Assembly (NCBI GenBank): GCA_027577595.1
Contig: JANBRJ010000004.1
Coordinates: forward strand, 1 to 64,000
Source of the DNA: Coemansia sp. RSA 487
Taxonomy: Eukaryota > Kickxellomycota > Kickxellomycetes > Kickxellales > Kickxellaceae
Direction: 5' to 3'
DNA length: 64,000 bases
In this document: in pieces, positions 1 through 6,944 of the stretch
How positions within the stretch are numbered: position 1 is the stretch's first letter
How the letters are laid out: each line of letters starts with the position of its first letter
Translations under genes and position numbers: made by a program
Notes under the pieces: generated by a model
Database searches by the model: none
What the model saw: only the letters and a program-made list of their open reading frames with translations
Told to the model about the DNA's origin: nothing

Positions 1-1
1 G

Positions 2-594
2 ATTCATCGCAAGCTTCGGCAATCCGCCCACATCAAGCAGCAACAAGCCGATGAGCAGCTAGCAAAGAGCATTCGGGTGACATGCGACGCTGAAAAACTC
101 ACTGTGATCTTAGGCAACTGGAGTGCGCCAATGGCTCGCTACCATGAGCCTATCCGGGGGTCGGATTTCGGCGAATGCTGAGGAAGAAAGGGTGCCGAGT
201 CTATCTTATCGACGAATTCAGAACATCAAAGGCTTGCCCGAACTGCCTCATCGGTACTCTTGAGAAGTTCCTGAAAGTGCCCAACCCCCGCCCCTACCAA
301 CGAAAGAAGATGAAAGAAGCCCTCTGCCACGGTCTCCTTAAGTGCACCAACGAACTATGTATGGGGCCCGTGGAAGTGGATGGTGTTTTAACTCCTCGTT
401 CACGCATGTACAACCGAGATCTCGCCGCCGTTCTCAGCTTTAGGCATATTTTCCATGACTTTCGCGATCACGGCGAGACTCCAGAGCGCTTCTGTCGCAG
501 TCAGCCTTATGCCGTTGCTACCACCGATGAACAGCAGCCCAAGAAGAAAAGGAAGACGACTGCAGCAAAGAAGACGGCGAGGACAAGCACATAA
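2..594 (+). CDS. Fanzor (eukaryotic TnpB-like RNA-guided nuclease), C-terminal part
   Basis: The protein enters from the left edge, so its N-terminus and first RuvC Asp are outside the window. Seen: reading frame 2 gives a helical stretch and then LTVILGNWSAPM. From about position 151 the homology continues in frame 1 with PGVGFRRMLRKK and VYLIDEFRTSKACPNC. Next come CTNELC, which completes a CxxC...CxxxxC zinc ribbon, and YNRDLAAVLSF, the RuvC-III Asp motif. This order (GxWS, GVGxRRxL, DExRTS, zinc ribbon, NRD) is characteristic of Fanzor/TnpB C-termini. The tail carries PKKKRK followed by a second basic cluster, an apparent nuclear localisation signal. The change of frame lies at a CCGGGGG run (154-160), where one base seems to be missing; it may be real decay or an assembly error. 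Fanzors cleave DNA guided by an RNA from their own 3' region. Family call is firm; activity is unknown. Confidence 0.85.
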
Positions 595-630
595 CCACCA
601 CGAAATTCAGCCAAGGTTATAGCTGCGGCA

Positions 631-660
631 AATCCTAGTTCTAGGAATCCTAGTTCTAGG
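631..660. repeat. Two perfect 15-bp tandem copies, each palindromic, just 3' of the Fanzor ORF
   Basis: The unit AATCCTAGTTCTAGG occurs twice head to tail (631-645 and 646-660), starting 37 bp after the Fanzor stop. Each unit holds an inverted repeat, CCTAG-TT-CTAGG, so a transcript could form one hairpin per unit or a longer stem between units. In the TnpB/Fanzor family the guide RNA is encoded at the 3' end of the element and runs to its right end. This site is placed as expected for that, but the link is inference. I see nothing else in 595-1017. Confidence 0.8.
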
Positions 661-1017
661 ACAGAATGCTGTCCCTTTTGCAGGTAAGTGCTCGGATGAG
701 AGCCGAGGAGATAAACATATCTGGCTGCTTCTAGGCAACAGTACTAATAATTTCTGTTTTCTCTTGTGTTTTCCTGCTTTGCACTGACCCATATGCTATG
801 CTACGCCAACCAACGCAAACGACTTTTTCTTGAAATGCAAAATGCATTATCACCACTGCAAACATTTGACCATTCGACGCGTATAAATCCATCCTTCTTA
901 TTCGACGCAACTAGTTTTGCAAAACACAGCACAAAGTGTAGCTTACGAAAAGCAAAAGCAAAAGCAGGTGTGATCTCCTTTATCACAGCAATAATCGATA
1001 GATACGGGGCACATGGG

Positions 1018-1935
1018 CTAGATAACCGGGCATTGTGCTTCGTCTGGGTGGAAAATCCACTTGAGCTGTTCGTGGTCGTTGCCAGGATCGAGCTTGCGCT
1101 CGCGCCTTTGAATTTTGCCAATCATGCGCATCTCGTCAGAGGACAGAGTCACCGTTTTCAGGTTCTGCTTGAGGCGGATTGGGTTGTTCGACTTTGGAAT
1201 GACAGCAATTCCACGAGCAAGCGACCAGGAGAGTGCGACCTGTGCAGGCGTGCATATGTGGGCCTCTGCAATGTGCTTGATCAGCTCGTCGTCCATGACG
1301 TTTATCCTGGTTCCGCCCAGAGGACAGTAGCCTGTGACGTGAATTCCATTGCTCTTGCAGAACTCGACAAGCTCCGGCTCCTGACAGTACGGGTGAACCT
1401 CGGTTTGGCTGACGGCCGGAATGATGCGACACTGAGGAAGCATCTTTTCCAGAATAGACTTGTTAAAGTTGGAAACGCCGATCGCACGGACCTTGCCCTT
1501 GTCAACCAGAGCCTCCATTTCCTTCCATGTATCCATGATAGGCACATTCTCAATGTCCTCGGACTTGAAGCTGCTATAGCCGGTTTCGGGCCTTGTTGCA
1601 TAAGGCCAGTGCATCAGAAGCAAGTCGAGGTAGTCAAGCTGCAGCTCGTCCAGGATGTCATCCGCCGCTGCTTCCACAAGCTCTGGTCTGTGGCTGTTCT
1701 CGAAGATCTTGGAAACAATAAAGAGATCCTTGCGAGGAACCTGCACATTCTTCAGTGCCTTTCCAATTTCGCGCTGGTTGCAATAGCATTTTGCACAGTC
1801 GATGTGTCTGTATCCCAGTTCAATGGCAGTCTTGACTGTTTTCTCCAGCTCGCCAGTCTTGTTTCCTTTCCACGTGCCCAGCCCGATTTCGGGCATGAGA
1901 ACACCATTGTTCAGTTTGAAGCTCTTGACATGCAT
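1018..1935 (-). CDS. Aldo/keto reductase
   Basis: This is a 305-residue protein, the normal size for a single-domain NADPH-dependent aldo/keto reductase (TIM barrel). The catalytic tetrad is visible: Asp46 and Tyr51 in HIDCAKCY, Lys76 in IVSKIF, and His109 in LMHWP. Downstream motifs are also typical: GKVRAIGVSNF, the substrate/cofactor loop QTEVHPYCQ, and the NADPH-binding AVIPKSNNP near the C-terminus. The family reduces aldehydes and ketones to alcohols, usually in the cytosol; the substrate cannot be read from the sequence. An unusual point is three cysteines (47, 50, 52) around the catalytic Tyr. The start is an ATG and no targeting signal is seen. Confidence 0.93.
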   Translation of the reverse strand: MHVKSFKLNNGVLMPEIGLGTWKGNKTGELEKTVKTAIELGYRHIDCAKCYCNQREIGKALKNVQVPRKDLFIVSKIFENSHRPELVEAAADDILDELQLDYLDLLLMHWPYATRPETGYSSFKSEDIENVPIMDTWKEMEALVDKGKVRAIGVSNFNKSILEKMLPQCRIIPAVSQTEVHPYCQEPELVEFCKSNGIHVTGYCPLGGTRINVMDDELIKHIAEAHICTPAQVALSWSLARGIAVIPKSNNPIRLKQNLKTVTLSSDEMRMIGKIQRRERKLDPGNDHEQLKWIFHPDEAQCPVI

Positions 1936-2611
1936 TTTCCGAGCAGTGTTAGTAAAATAGGGAATCGGATTGATGCTACACTAAAGGTCGATAAAAAAAT
2001 AAAGCTTTTGGATATATGAAGAGATGAAGAGATCTATTTGCTTGCAGATTTTGGATTGCTTTTAAAGACCATGCTACGTTCTTGCATATTGCTTGTTTGC
2101 GTTTTTATCTTCCCCTAGTCCAGTAATTAACAGGTTTGATTGGAGATAAACATGGGAGCTGGGTAGTGCGCAAGCAGTACTGTGGAAGAATTGCCAGCAA
2201 TAGCAGAATCTCTCGTCTGCTTGCAATTATGTCAAGTTGTTTGTTAGTATCCAATAGCACGGATTTTCCAGACATCATTGTGGCTGCTTATCGGGATTTT
2301 CTGTATGATTTGTGGCGATTTTTTTACCATATGGTGGTCTCAATTTATTCCCAGGCGTGGAATTTAAAAACACCCGAATTTAGGCAATGTGGCGATATGT
2401 GATCCAACAGTTGGATCATCATATCTTTTGCGTTTACTGCTTGTTTGGCTGGATCTTTCCATAATCTCAAGATGGAGGAAAGCAAACATCTGATTTTGCT
2501 CTCAGATCTTTTTCCTCGCTTTTTTTTCTCATAAGGAATTCGATTTTTCTCCGCACTTTTCTTTCCTTTGTTTTCCATACCTTTTTTAGCTAGTAAAGTG
2601 CTGAATTTGAA
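1936..2611. other. Gene-free divergent promoter region
   Basis: This stretch separates the minus-strand reductase from the plus-strand biotin ligase and must hold both promoters. It is A+T-rich with a T-rich run before 2612. I see no RNA gene, repeat or credible ORF. Confidence 0.6.
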
Positions 2612-4774
2612 ATGGTGGCGCTAAATGTCCTGGTTTACTGTGGACCGGGAATCGGCCTCAACGCATACGCCTATTTGATACGGACGCTGCGGCAGTTCCT
2701 GGGACATCGGTACGCAATTATCCCAGTCGACCCAGAGACTCTGCGCAAGGAGCCATGGGAGTCAAAGGCTGCCATGCTTGTTGTTCCGGGCGGTCGAGAC
2801 ATGCCTTATGTGGCGGCAATGAACGGAGAGATCAACAAGCGGATCAGAGAATGGGTCTACCGCGGCGGCAGATACTTGGGGTTTTGCGCAGGTGGATATT
2901 ATGGAAGCGGGCACTGCGAGTTTGAGCCGGGAACGCCTCTTGAAGTCGTTGGCGATCGTGAGCTTGCCCTTTTCAAGGGTACGTGTCTAGGCTGTGCATA
3001 TCCCGGCTACAACTACAAGTCAGAGGACGGAGCGCGCGCGGCAGAGGCGGCTGTAGATAAAGACGCATTCCAACTTCCTTCATCTTTCTGGAAGCAAGAC
3101 CCAACAAACGTGCGCATATACTACAACGGCGGCGGCTACTTTTTGACTGACGAGTTTCTGGGAAAGCACCCTGCGAACGACAACGCCTCGATCCTCGTGC
3201 GCTACGCTTCGGACGTCTCGGATCCTAGGAACCGAGCCAAGCTGGTTACTGGCGCGCCTGCAGTTATTAGCTGCAGTGTTGGTAGGGGGATTACTGTGTT
3301 GTCTGGGCTGCACCCTGAGTATGCGTGGGACTTTTTGGCGCCATCCAGCTACACTCAGCCCCACAACAAGCACCTGGTGTCTCTTCTTCGTAGCCACGAT
3401 GCTTATCGCAGACGACTGGTGGGCGCAATTCTGGCACATATGAATATGGATGTTGACAAGGAGGCCCTTGTTGACAACGTTAGCTTCGACCACTCGAACC
3501 GCGTTCCAGCAAAGACACCCACGTTTATCGTGCCTGCCCGCGTCTCTGGCGTTGCAGCTGCCGCGACCACAATGTATGCGCTGAAAAACGCGGCATCTGC
3601 ACGCGGCCGGCACGACACGGATGGTATTATTGACACTGTTCTTCACGATAATGCCGATGATATCCACATCATAAGCGCTGTTTCGGAAAACAACCAGCGC
3701 AGAGTCCCCCGCGCCTATCAGGACGCTGTGCTTTTGCCGTCAGCAATTGATCCGGCCTCGAAGCACAGCCTAATCGGACTGGAGGGTGCCGGGCTTCAGC
3801 AAGATGCGAACAAAGACCAGTCGATGCTTGTTCTCTGCACACAGGACTCTCTGCCTGGCAGCAAAGAGACCCCGAGATTCGACATGAAGCTTGCAATAAA
3901 GTACATGCAGGAGGAGAAGGCGCATACAGCTGGCGCTTGGCTGATGTACTCTGACACAACGAACTCTACACAAACATTTATAGAGAAAAACACAAGGCTG
4001 CAGGCGCTGTTGCCTAACGGAACAGTCAACGTAGCGACCATCCAGCTTGCAGCGCGCGGGCGCGGACGCAACGCCTGGGTGTCCCCCGTCGGCTGTATGC
4101 AGTTCACCATGCTTCTGAGACATCCCACCCTGAAGCAGGCACCTGTGGTAATGATGCAGTATCTCATGTCCGTTGCAATAGTCGAAGCAGTAAAGTCACA
4201 GCCTGGATACGATGGCATTCCGCTGCGCCTAAAGTGGCCGAATGATGTGTATGCTTTGCACACCCCAGTGGGCGACAGCTCCGACAGCTCCGAAAACACA
4301 GATCCTAGCTACGCAAAGGTCGGCGGGATCCTAGTCAGCTCCTCGTTCAAGGCTGGCGAATTCACTCTGCTTTTTGGCTGTGGCATCAATGTGGCCAACC
4401 CACTGCCCACAACATCCATCAACAAATTAATTCACGAGTACAATCTCAGCCACGGAACCAGTCTTGCAGAAATGTCGATGGAAAAGATGGTAGCCCTGGT
4501 CACTGCAAAGTTCGAAGAGCTGTACCGCAAGTTCCTTGTCAGCGGCTTTGAGCCTCTCCTGCCGCTGTACTATAAAAGCTGGCTGCACTCGGGCCAGCAC
4601 GTCACACTTGCTGACCAGGGTTACGAGAGGGCAAAGGTCATTGGGCTGTGTCCGGTATCTGGGCTCTTGAGAGTCAACAGCCTTGTCAACCCAGGCACGG
4701 TCTATGAGCTCCAGCCAGACGGCAATTCCTTTGACATGCTACAAGGACTAATAAGCCGTAAAGCAGGCGTTTGA
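2612..4774 (+). CDS. BPL1: Biotin-protein ligase (holocarboxylase synthetase)
   Basis: The enzyme activates biotin as biotinyl-AMP and attaches it to lysines of carboxylases such as acetyl-CoA and pyruvate carboxylase. The 720-residue length and two-part layout match fungal Bpl1. Residues about 1-260 form a class I glutamine-amidotransferase-like domain, with VVPGGRDMPY and the nucleophile-elbow motif FCAGGYYGS. The ligase domain occupies about residues 430-720. It shows the biotinyl-AMP loop GRGRNAWVSP (about 480-490), KWPNDVY (about 540) and KVGGILVSS, followed by a C-terminal SH3-like domain. The middle (about 300-420) is poorly conserved. The start ATG at 2612 follows a T-rich leader and no targeting peptide is evident, so the cytosol is likely. 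Probably intact. Confidence 0.95.
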   Translation: MVALNVLVYCGPGIGLNAYAYLIRTLRQFLGHRYAIIPVDPETLRKEPWESKAAMLVVPGGRDMPYVAAMNGEINKRIREWVYRGGRYLGFCAGGYYGSGHCEFEPGTPLEVVGDRELALFKGTCLGCAYPGYNYKSEDGARAAEAAVDKDAFQLPSSFWKQDPTNVRIYYNGGGYFLTDEFLGKHPANDNASILVRYASDVSDPRNRAKLVTGAPAVISCSVGRGITVLSGLHPEYAWDFLAPSSYTQPHNKHLVSLLRSHDAYRRRLVGAILAHMNMDVDKEALVDNVSFDHSNRVPAKTPTFIVPARVSGVAAAATTMYALKNAASARGRHDTDGIIDTVLHDNADDIHIISAVSENNQRRVPRAYQDAVLLPSAIDPASKHSLIGLEGAGLQQDANKDQSMLVLCTQDSLPGSKETPRFDMKLAIKYMQEEKAHTAGAWLMYSDTTNSTQTFIEKNTRLQALLPNGTVNVATIQLAARGRGRNAWVSPVGCMQFTMLLRHPTLKQAPVVMMQYLMSVAIVEAVKSQPGYDGIPLRLKWPNDVYALHTPVGDSSDSSENTDPSYAKVGGILVSSSFKAGEFTLLFGCGINVANPLPTTSINKLIHEYNLSHGTSLAEMSMEKMVALVTAKFEELYRKFLVSGFEPLLPLYYKSWLHSGQHVTLADQGYERAKVIGLCPVSGLLRVNSLVNPGTVYELQPDGNSFDMLQGLISRKAGV

Positions 4775-5006
4775 TCAAAAAAAAAAAACTGCTTTGAGTA
4801 AAAAGCTGGCTTTACTGCCGATAAAATTGCAGAGTTTCTTCAAGAACCGAGAACTGCTACTTTTCTACCTTTGAGGGCGTATCTTTTACCCCTTTGTTTT
4901 GAATTTTATTGCATTTTCTTGGACTGTTTCTTTTGAAATTGGCATTAGCTTTTATAGTGTGGACGACGTCGTTCTATAAGCCAAGCATTCAGAGTTTGAA
5001 GTGGAA

Positions 5007-6944
5007 ATGGTTGGTCTTTTAAGCAAAGCACTGTCCGTCATGGCGTTAGCCTTGTTCGCATACTACGTGCTGCGCATGGTCTTGGTTGGTTTGTATCTAT
5101 TCTATCCAACGACGCACATACCGCTTCTGAGGCCCATGAAAGCCATATCGCCCAACATGGTAACGCACGGGCTCGCCTGGCAGGAGCCATTCGAATACGA
5201 AGCAAGTATGTATGTGACTACTACACGCAGATTGGACTTTGGTCCAGATCTCTTCAACACATCGGAGCTTGTCTGGAAAGCAGGACCGCAGAGCATATCG
5301 CAGCGGCGCATACGGATAGAAAAGCATCTGGACATTACGATCCCCACTAATATGCTCACTGATAACGGAACCAACCTTTATGCCGTGCTGTTTGTCCAGA
5401 AAGCAGGGCAATCCATGCCCCATCCAAACATCAATGATCCGTATCTGGCGATTGCGCACACCCAGCTCACCAAGATCCGCCCGCGTGTAGTAGACAAAAA
5501 GCATGCCTTGCTTACCGACAAGAACACCAATAATGTGGGTGCTACCAGCGAGCATCTCTCAACTAATGAGTCGGGAGACAAAGCCATCGAAGAGGGCGTT
5601 TGGGTTCCGCATGCAAAGAGCCGGATTCACTGGGAGATTGTGCTTGACGACATAAAGTTCCCCGAGTGGGCCATACCGCGGGACATTTTACCCTATTTGA
5701 AGGTTACCAAAGATAGCGTCCGCAGGAAACAGCCCTACATTCCGATACTCTGGGAAAACCCACTGGCCGCACGCAAGGATGGTTGGAAGCCGCTCACAAG
5801 CAAAGATACTATATCCAAAGATGTTCCATTGGAAACAAAGTCGATCTCGATCGATGCCAGCCTAGGCAGCGTTTCTCTCGGGTGGTTTCGCCTGTGCAAC
5901 TATGCATATCAGGGGCTCAGCGAGCTAACCTCTCCGCGTGCCTTGATCCAGTACAGCGAGTCCGATGTCGATAATTTGAAGGAAATGGTGTATGAGGTGA
6001 ACCCAACCATGCTTACAATCACAATGGTCGCAATGGCGCTCCACTTGCTGTTTGAGTTTTTGGCGTACAAGGAAGACGTGTCGTTTTGGTCCAGCAAAAG
6101 CGATTCAAACCTGCAAGGCATTTCGCGGTCATCGGTGCTGATGGGCTTGGCAAGCTCGTGTATCAGCTGCTTTTATTTGTGGGACCGCAGGCACGAAACT
6201 AACATTGTGGTTCTCTTGGGCGCAACAGCGGGCGCCTTTGTCGAAGTGTGGAAAGCTACCAAGGTCATACATGTTGCCGATCTGCTGCCATTTGGGCGCA
6301 AACAGCGGCTGAAGAGCAGTACGGACAAGAGAACAGCGCAGATCCAGACCACAGAGACGAGCTTGAGAGAAAAAGTGCAGCGCGAAGTTGACAAGCAGAC
6401 AGCGTGGTACATGGTGAACCTGTGCCTTCCTGCGATGGTTGTGTACGCAGCGTTTTCACTTGTGTACCAACGACACGAGTCATACATAAGCTGGTTCCTC
6501 AACATCAGCCTGGTCACCGTATATACGCTTGAATTCATTCAGATGTGGCCTCAACTCCTCATCAACCACAAGCTCAAAACCGTCGACATGCTTCCGCTCA
6601 CTGCTTTCCTTTACCGATTCCTAACCACGTTTATCGACGATCTGTATGCGCTTGTGGTTCCCATGCCACTTCTCGAGCGCATTGGCACGCTGCGGGACGA
6701 TCTGGTCTTTTTTGTCCTTTGCTACCAATGGTACAGGTTCCCTCGGCGCAAGGAGGCAGACAGCGGCACAAATATTACTGCTGCTGTTTCTGCTGATACT
6801 GGTGGATCTACAGAAAAAGCAGCCACTAGCAAGACCGAGACCAAGATCAAATCCAACCTCAGAGCCAGAACCAAGAGAAGAAGCGAAAGTGCGGTCCACC
6901 AGACCCCCCTAAGCAAAGAATCAGCAGCGAAGGCTGGAAATTAG
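5007..6944 (+). CDS. CLPTM1-family multi-pass membrane protein
   Basis: The open frame begins at a GTG (5001), but the first ATG is at 5007, giving 645 residues. There is one N-terminal membrane segment (about residues 8-32) and a large lumenal region (about 35-325). A group of membrane segments follows (about 330-575), then a basic, Ser/Thr-rich tail. The family signature is clear near the end: PQLLINHKLKTVDMLP, FIDDLYALVVPMP, RDDLVFF and YQWYRFPRRK. Human CLPTM1L is reported as an ER lipid scramblase acting on GPI precursors, and CLPTM1 affects receptor trafficking. Whether this fungal protein does either is inference. No break is seen. Confidence 0.92.
   Translation: MVGLLSKALSVMALALFAYYVLRMVLVGLYLFYPTTHIPLLRPMKAISPNMVTHGLAWQEPFEYEASMYVTTTRRLDFGPDLFNTSELVWKAGPQSISQRRIRIEKHLDITIPTNMLTDNGTNLYAVLFVQKAGQSMPHPNINDPYLAIAHTQLTKIRPRVVDKKHALLTDKNTNNVGATSEHLSTNESGDKAIEEGVWVPHAKSRIHWEIVLDDIKFPEWAIPRDILPYLKVTKDSVRRKQPYIPILWENPLAARKDGWKPLTSKDTISKDVPLETKSISIDASLGSVSLGWFRLCNYAYQGLSELTSPRALIQYSESDVDNLKEMVYEVNPTMLTITMVAMALHLLFEFLAYKEDVSFWSSKSDSNLQGISRSSVLMGLASSCISCFYLWDRRHETNIVVLLGATAGAFVEVWKATKVIHVADLLPFGRKQRLKSSTDKRTAQIQTTETSLREKVQREVDKQTAWYMVNLCLPAMVVYAAFSLVYQRHESYISWFLNISLVTVYTLEFIQMWPQLLINHKLKTVDMLPLTAFLYRFLTTFIDDLYALVVPMPLLERIGTLRDDLVFFVLCYQWYRFPRRKEADSGTNITAAVSADTGGSTEKAATSKTETKIKSNLRARTKRRSESAVHQTPLSKESAAKAGN

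What the first reader, a model, noticed from the sequence alone, without database searches (positions are those of the whole stretch)
2..594. Fanzor with a C-terminal PKKKRK nuclear signal in a fungal genome
Seen: GNWS, GVGFRRML, DEFRTS, CxxC...CxxxxC zinc ribbon and NRD motif in the order of Fanzor/TnpB C-termini, then PKKKRK. Known: Fanzors are eukaryotic RNA-guided DNA nucleases carried by transposable elements. The basic tail would let the protein reach nuclear DNA. It sits next to ordinary housekeeping genes, so its insertion and spread in this lineage are of interest.
Basis: partly seen in the sequence, partly recalled or inferred. Interest (0 to 1): 0.75.

Follow-up and report, generated by a model that had tools for sequence, protein, structure and literature searches.

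The report
Broken Fanzor transposon end in Coemansia
The window starts inside a broken copy of a fungal jumping gene that carries Fanzor, a eukaryotic cousin of CRISPR nucleases; about a hundred related loci lie in this genome, and the DNA at their ends hints that the guide RNA may be assembled in an unusual way.

Summary
Window 2-594 is the 3' part of a Fanzor1 gene: RuvC-II Glu, C4 zinc ribbon, RuvC-III Asp, PKKKRK tail. The window is also base 1 of contig C4, so no left flank exists. Contig lengths identify Coemansia sp. RSA 487.

Paralogues about 90% identical carry RuvC-I Asp and match Parasitella Fanzor1 (E 1.6e-99). They sit in a Tc1/mariner-type transposon: inverted repeats of about 120 bp, TA-like flanks, DDE_3 transposase, often an antisense Ty3 gag-RT fragment, then Fanzor. 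This copy's right end is at 929, not 594. The listed matches merge into 131 loci: 100 close, 31 divergent. Many of the close ones look like one internal-deletion form ("ghosts").

All of that has published precedent. The oddity is the guide-RNA region. Three copies of a divergent family in this genome have a folded RNA touching their right end. The close family's right end is unfolded; its structured block lies about 250 nt upstream, beside splice-like signals and a third repeat-like arm. A spliced omega-RNA is possible but unproven; one control speaks against it.

The parts
1..929 (+). 3' part of a Tc1/mariner-type transposon carrying Fanzor1; cut on the left by the start of contig C4
   Evidence: similarity to L009 and other copies ends at about 931; terminal motif ends at 929
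2..594 (+). 3' part of the Fanzor1 ORF, in frame 2 up to about 157 and in frame 1 from there to the stop at 592-594
   Evidence: translations; 85-90% identity to 14 paralogues
156..160 (+). G run, one base shorter than in the open paralogue L009: frameshift
   Evidence: aligned copies
214..216 (+). Glu codon of IDEF (RuvC-II)
   Evidence: aligned with DEYKTS of SpuFz1 through L009
235..360 (+). zinc ribbon: Cys codons 235-237, 244-246, 343-345, 358-360
418..420 (+). Asp codon of NRD (RuvC-III)
538..555 (+). PKKKRK tail
   Evidence: in nine other ORFs printed
631..683 (+). structured block after the stop codon, candidate guide-RNA scaffold
   Evidence: window copy block z -3.6; mean over 28 copies -1.27, uneven
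667..683 (+). internal arm resembling a third, inverted copy of the terminal repeat
   Evidence: pairwise score 44, best of 1000 shuffles 40; pairs with left and right repeats alike
684..914 (+). hypothetical intron: donor GTAAGT 684-689, branch-like TACTAAT 742-748, acceptor CTAG 911-914
   Evidence: signals present; no transcripts available
805..929 (+). right terminal inverted repeat
   Evidence: inverted match to the left end of L029 and of other copies
930..931 (+). flanking CA (expected TA for Tc1/mariner)
   Evidence: CA in 22 of 35 right ends
932..951 (+). flank: predicted guide region, if the guide is the right flank
   Evidence: inference from published Fanzors (PMC10432273 section 7); not tested; length nominal

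Best explanation
The window begins in a dead, 5'-cut copy of a Tc1/mariner-type DNA transposon of Coemansia sp. RSA 487 that carries a Fanzor1 gene. SHOWN by sequence: inverted repeats of about 120 bp, TA-like flanks, a DDE_3 transposase upstream of Fanzor in several copies, open Fanzor1 ORFs with the full RuvC triad in other copies, an antisense Ty3 gag-protease-RT fragment in dozens of places, and a set of internal-deletion derivatives that keep the Fanzor 3' end and both ends (ghosts). INFERRED: the transposase moves the element at TA; Fanzor, with an omega-RNA whose guide is the right flank, cuts the emptied site next to an ATN-type motif, and repair from another copy restores the element; broken and ghost copies ride in trans. 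This copy makes no full Fanzor protein; whether it still makes a guide RNA is open.
For: Matches to Parasitella Fanzor1 (1.6e-99), SpuFz1 and Guillardia Fanzor1 with D, E and D aligned; inverted ends and measured element sizes; DDE_3 in seven element loci that I hold, with 80.7 and 41.8 bits against a cut-off of 28.6 in the two ORFs scored; 100 close and 31 divergent loci among the listed matches; dN/dS 0.22-0.39 in 21 pairs of 7 open ORFs; ATN left of 14 of 20 elements, the TAM measured for PpFz1.
Against: No RNA, no cleavage data and no empty site (32 hits, all of them the loci themselves). The right flank is CA more often than TA, so the TA duplication is not proven. The right end of this family lacks the folded RNA expected of an ordinary omega-RNA. 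The seven ORFs were chosen for being open, and three are incomplete at one end.
Confidence: 0.87

Rival explanations
1. Split, spliced omega-RNA: the scaffold lies just after the stop codon, and an intron (684-914 here) that holds most of the right inverted repeat is removed, so that block 631-683 plus TTTTGCAAAACACAG-CA is joined to the guide. The product would have two stem-loops and about 55 nt of scaffold.
For: Perfect GTARGT donor in 26 of 35 copies, branch-like motif and a 156-nt AG-free consensus up to CTAG, shuffle p 0.0016; mean z -2.32 after joining against -1.27 for the block alone and about +0.6 to +0.95 at the right end (28 of 30 copies); 420 of 455 pair cells kept against 412.3 +/- 2.1 shuffled, p 0.0018, and GCAG only with CACTG ends, 4 of 4; about 55 nt plus guide is close to the 75-nt omega-RNA of PpFz1; conserved C of the flank pairs with G.
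Against: The internal arm pairs with the left repeat as well as with the right one (191 against 187 of 208). The tool's own count without a gap is weaker: 19 of 500 shuffles as high for cells paired, 131 of 500 for pairs changed on both sides. The AG-poor stretch is shared by the left repeat. Donor GT is lost in 3 and acceptor AG in 5 of 35 copies. The branch-to-acceptor distance is long for a fungus (recalled). The signals were noticed after the fact.
Confidence: 0.2
2. Unspliced omega-RNA: the block after the stop codon and the last 17 bases pair over a distance, with the repeat looped out, or the right end folds only when bound to protein.
For: The same pairs and the same covariation; published omega-RNAs end at the right boundary (PMC10432273 section 7).
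Against: No stable fold in the last 60-140 nt; a loop of about 230 nt would be unusual (recalled).
Confidence: 0.4
3. No guide function is left: the 3' module is the remnant of an old inverted-repeat insertion, the pairing is its by-product, and the family moved by its transposase alone.
For: Third repeat-like arm; equal pairing with the left repeat; long tips and a star-like tree.
Against: dN/dS 0.22-0.39 between open ORFs; the ATN bias left of the elements, although a TA target preference may explain part of it.
Confidence: 0.35
4. A lone host gene or bacterial contamination rather than a transposon.
For: It sits next to ordinary genes.
Against: About 100 related loci with shared inverted termini; the named homologues in the listing are fungal.
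Confidence: 0.01

Closest known systems
Parasitella parasitica Fanzor1 (PpFz1, PDB 9cf0)
   Same: Closest solved relative by sequence (E 1.6e-99); TAM 5'-ATN (PMC11423790, passages) resembles the left flanks here; 75-nt omega-RNA with two stem-loops (section 5).
   Different: Its scaffold adjoins the guide; here the structured block lies about 250 nt before the right end.
SpuFz1 elements and ghost loci of Spizellomyces punctatus
   Same: Many Fanzor loci, more deletion derivatives, embedded Ty3 sequence, conserved CA at a boundary (PMC10432273 section 7).
   Different: 30-nt repeats, omega-RNA across the right repeat, CA at the left end, no transposase found between the ends (passage); here repeats of about 120 bp, a DDE_3 transposase, CA at the right end.
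Fanzor1 in Tc1/mariner elements (PGv-1, PUl-1, PUl-4)
   Same: Mariner-like transposase, Fanzor1, TA target (PMC3627910, passages).
   Different: Not reported there for Coemansia (0 occurrences); the antisense Ty3 piece and the third repeat-like arm are not described in the passages that I saw.
Introners and stwintrons of fungi
   Same: Inverted-repeat DNA that is removed as an intron (listing and abstract starts only).
   Different: Those interrupt protein genes as far as the abstracts say; here the interrupted unit would be a guide RNA at a transposon boundary, and splicing is not shown.

Membership tests
Fanzor1 protein | RuvC-I Asp, RuvC-II Glu, RuvC-III Asp | tested here: met
   met in L009 by alignment to SpuFz1 and PpFz1; the window copy itself holds only the Glu and the last Asp
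Fanzor1 protein | C4 zinc ribbon before the final RD | tested here: met
   Cys codons at 235, 244, 343, 358; Pfam TNB below its cut-off
Fanzor1 protein | sequence similarity to proven Fanzor1 | tested here: met
   E 1.6e-99, 1.7e-42, 2.6e-5
Fanzor1 protein | RNA-guided cleavage of DNA | not testable with these tools
   needs expression and a cleavage assay
Fanzor omega-RNA system | structured scaffold adjoining the right end | tested here: not met
   family 1 right end mean z +0.5 to +0.95; three copies of the divergent family serve as a positive control, last 90 nt z -5.8, -4.4, -2.9
Fanzor omega-RNA system | TAM-like motif left of the element | tested here: inconclusive
   ATN in 14 of 20, but the TA target preference of the transposase may explain it
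Tc1/mariner transposon | DDE transposase of the DDE_3 type inside the element | tested here: met
   seven held element loci
Tc1/mariner transposon | terminal inverted repeats | tested here: met
Tc1/mariner transposon | TA duplication on both sides | tested here: inconclusive
   left TA 14 of 20; right CA 22 and TA 9 of 35; no empty site
Ghost (deletion) loci | both ends and the Fanzor 3' end kept, ORF body lost | tested here: met
   nine elements of 952-1,043 bp; junction seen to be shared in L025 and L026
Intron / introner | splicing at sites near the repeat ends | not testable with these tools
   no transcripts held; only sequence signals

The most novel reading that the evidence does not exclude
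A transposon-encoded guide RNA that is completed by the spliceosome: the scaffold is split by an intron that hides the long right inverted repeat, the exon junction forms the loop of the guide-proximal hairpin, and the flanking CA closes the scaffold. This would let a Fanzor live in a transposon whose ends are too long for an ordinary omega-RNA.
Probability: 0.2. Interest if true: 0.88.

Novelty: new variant of a known kind. Interest (0 to 1): 0.5.

Why it matters
Most of the picture (Fanzor1 in a mariner-type element, ghosts, Ty3 pieces) extends known biology to Coemansia; a search of the held library for Coemansia together with Fanzor gave no paper. What would matter is the guide-RNA question: two Fanzor families in one small genome differ sharply in where the RNA structure lies, so small-RNA sequencing of one fungus would show how a Fanzor copes with a transposon that has long inverted repeats, and whether a guide RNA can be spliced.

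Tried and rejected
Tried without result or dropped: (1) Empty-site search with 16 joined flank pairs found only the loci themselves, 32 of 32 hits. (2) PF03184 (DDE_1) found nothing here and rang in none of the 14 control genomes, so it is uninformative. (3) One search used the wrong strand coordinates of L018 and is discarded. (4) Host intron consensus from the window: 23 candidates, none convincing, not used. (5) My early reading that the element lacks a transposase was dropped. (6) An LTR retrotransposon carrying Fanzor: dropped, because the ends are inverted, not direct, repeats. (7) AG scarcity as proof of splicing: weakened, because the left repeat is similarly AG-poor. (8) Pairing as proof of RNA structure: weakened by the left-repeat control. 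(9) Structure prediction was not run; the sequence match to solved Fanzor1 was enough.

Full report
WHAT IS IN THE WINDOW. The window is bases 1-64000 of contig C4 of a 17.79-Mb, 184-contig assembly. C17 is 243,789 and C22 is 194,583 bases long, exactly the contig lengths given for three single-member, single-contig protein records of Coemansia sp. RSA 487 (EV179_001941, EV179_002360, EV179_002369), so I take the genome to be that strain. Bases 2-594 are the 3' part of a Fanzor1 gene. In the open paralogue L009 the G run at 156-160 is one base longer. Of 23 other loci aligned there, L018, L023 and L024 have the same shortened length and L022 is shorter still; the sister of the window copy in the tree of 3' ends is L016, not one of these. 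The copy is therefore both cut by the contig start and frameshifted. No other match was listed in the window; the other matches listed on C4 are beyond base 180,000.

IDENTITY. The L009 ORF matches Parasitella parasitica Fanzor1 (E 1.6e-99), SpuFz1 (1.7e-42) and Guillardia Fanzor1 (2.6e-5) in the PDB sequence set. DPG, IDEF and NRD align with SpuFz1 motifs that I take to be D383/N385, E541 and D606 of Saito et al. (PMC10432273, passages; the assignment is my reading of the alignment). 140 homologues were found and 120 listed; the named ones are fungal: 76-100% identical proteins in Coemansia RSA 1813, 986, 1843, 1646 and 487, and 29-47% relatives in other Coemansia, Martensiomyces, Dichotomocladium, Rhizopus, Pilaira and Helicostylum. 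Nine ORFs printed end in the PKKKRK tail (the print was partly selected by that motif). Of eight more distant proteins that I read, four (P0044, P0045, P0048, P0063) have basic tails. That such a tail is a nuclear signal is recalled, not tested.

THE ELEMENT. Fanzor sits between inverted repeats of about 120 bp. Sizes measured within single loci: 2.8-3.0 kb (L010, L020, L022), 3.9-4.0 kb (L012, L016), 1.4 kb (L024, L058), and 0.95-1.04 kb in nine ghosts: L025, L034, L036, L037, L038, L039, L043, L051, L056 (the right end of L037 is a weak match). A longer form of about 6.5 kb is my estimate from the coordinates of two loci, L029 and L009. DDE_3 matches number 51 in the genome; seven fall in element loci that I hold (L012, L016, L019, L022, L029, L030, L031). 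In L012 and L016 they lie between the left repeat and Fanzor, on the Fanzor strand; L029 holds only the left part, with the same order. The L029 ORF scores 80.7 bits and the L016 ORF 41.8 (cut-off 28.6). Between transposase and Fanzor a Ty3-like gag-protease-RT piece with frameshifts lies on the reverse strand; a query from it gave 84 matches in the genome (40 of 98 candidates scored). It ends near the start of RNase H (RVT_1 E 5.5e-15 in L029 and 1.4e-17 in L018). I noticed no integrase in the frames printed for L029-L031, but did not search for one. The element is thus a Tc1/mariner-type transposon carrying Fanzor1, a combination described in 2013 (PMC3627910, passages).

CENSUS AND AGE. The protein search gave 154 matches, 150 listed. 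Merging pieces on one strand within 600 bp gives 131 loci: 100 with a piece at 55% identity or more (family 1) and 31 below that. These are lower bounds: 150 of 187 candidates were scored. Of the 100, 26 reach the start of the query, 11 begin at residues 17-35, 43 at 36-48 and 20 later. L025 and L026 share an internal junction there (L009 position 4069), so the 43 are probably mostly one founder deletion, but I did not fetch most of them. Thirteen family-1 loci start within 100 bases of a contig start, all on the + strand, which I read as assembly breaks in repeats. Of the 20 family-1 loci L009-L028, 7 have ORFs of at least 600 aa with the RuvC-I motif. Pairwise dN/dS among them is 0.22-0.39 in 21 pairs over 580 codons. 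They were picked for being open, and three are incomplete at one end, so this shows past selection, not present function. The Ty3 piece is less conserved between copies than the Fanzor part (L009 and L011: 85.4% against 90.3%). Four of five differences between the open ORFs, summed over pairs, are transitions (2,849 of 3,529).

TARGET SITE. Just left of the element the sequence is ATN in 14 of 20 copies, against 7.3% AT dinucleotides nearby. The TAM measured for PpFz1 is 5'-ATN (PMC11423790, passages). The outward dinucleotide is TA in 14 of 20 left ends, but CA in 22 and TA in 9 of 35 right ends; C against T by side, Fisher p 0.011. Sixteen joined flank pairs found no empty site, so the target duplication remains unproven.

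THE PUZZLE AT THE RIGHT END. In the divergent family, three copies (L062-L064) stay alike until about 126 nt after the stop codon and then differ; I read that boundary by eye as their right end. The RNA before it is strongly folded: last 90 nt z -5.8, -4.4 and -2.9, although L064 is weak over the last 60 nt (z -0.9). In family 1 the last 60-140 nt have no stable fold: mean z +0.5 to +0.8 in 8 copies, +0.95 for the last 112 nt in 28 of 30 copies (L010 and L014 were skipped by my pattern). The folded part is a block just after the stop codon (mean z -1.27 in the same 28, uneven between copies). Next to it stand a donor-like GTARGT (perfect in 26 of 35 copies), TACTAA and a T-rich stretch, then a consensus of 156 nt without AG up to CTAG, 15 bases before the end. 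Joining the block to the last 15 bases plus CA gives a 6+7-bp hairpin and a mean z of -2.32. With a one-base gap allowed in three copies, 420 of 455 pair cells in 35 copies are kept, against 412.3 +/- 2.1 when partners are shuffled (p 0.0018); the GCAG variant occurs only with CACTG ends (4 of 4), while 5 of the other 31 also have CACTG (Fisher p 0.0024). The tool's own count on 34 copies, without that gap, is weaker: 89.6% of cells paired, 19 of 500 shuffles as high; 131 of 500 for pairs changed on both sides.

RESULTS AGAINST THE SPLICING READING. The internal arm pairs with the left repeat as well as with the right one (191 and 187 of 208 cells in 16 copies that have both); only one pair favours the right end clearly (14 against 8 of 16), and another favours the left (10 against 15). 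The region from the arm onward resembles a terminal repeat (score 44, best of 1000 shuffles 40; p 0.011 without the last 19 bases). So the arm may be an old third repeat and the pairing its by-product. The AG-free stretch is mostly repeat sequence that is AG-poor at the left end too (means 1.25 left, 0.74 right; p 0.20). The acceptor AG is lost in 5 of 35 copies and the donor GT in 3 of 35, which is no sign of constraint after insertion. The branch-to-acceptor distance is long for a fungus (recalled). I therefore give the spliced guide RNA about one chance in five. The displaced structure itself is a measured difference between the two families.

COMPARISON. Ghost loci and Ty3 sequence inside Fanzor elements are known from S. 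punctatus (42 Fanzor loci, 134 ghosts, 11 loci with embedded genes; PMC10432273 section 7). There the repeats are 30 nt, the omega-RNA spans the right repeat, and no transposase was found between the ends (passage). In ascovirus Fanzor1 the target duplication is part of the scaffold (PMC10711439, passages), which parallels the CA here. Searches of the held library for Coemansia with Fanzor (none), for Fanzor with intron and splicing (19 papers, 12 listed; titles and abstract starts seen) and for TnpB, guide RNA, splicing, intron and transposon end (at least 4 of the 5 terms: 38 papers, 12 listed) showed me no report of a spliced omega-RNA. One listed paper reports circular omega-RNAs in archaea (PMC12558985, listing only).

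VERDICT. The finding is real: a dead fragment of a Fanzor1-bearing mariner-type transposon, one of about a hundred related loci. Identity, element type and ghosts are new members of known kinds; the guide-RNA arrangement is a likely variant that can be tested with one RNA-sequencing experiment.

Noticed in passing
window 1018-6944: The neighbours are an aldo/keto reductase (-, 1018-1935), a biotin-protein ligase (+, 2612-4774) and a CLPTM1 family protein (+, 5001-6944) by Pfam; the element ends 89 bases from the end of the reductase ORF.
   Followed up: partly
L062, L063, L064 and the 31 loci below 55% identity: A divergent Fanzor family in the same genome, with several listed open frames of 750 aa or more and a folded RNA touching its right end.
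   Followed up: partly
L009 1-1566, L018, L019, L029-L031: Reverse-strand Ty3-like gag-protease-RT fragment carried between transposase and Fanzor; one query from it gave 84 matches in the genome.
   Followed up: partly
right ends of family-1 copies (window 930-931): The right flank is CA (22 of 35) while the left is TA (14 of 20); not explained by a plain TA duplication.
   Followed up: partly
L025/L032 and L060, left flanks: Two element copies (C103 and C40) share nearly the same left flanking sequence, a sign of a duplicated segment or a repeated target.
   Followed up: no
C60:58923-59494 of G000: Two repeat ends in opposite orientation about 570 bases apart with no Fanzor match listed there: a possible small derivative of the same transposon; not fetched.
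   Followed up: no
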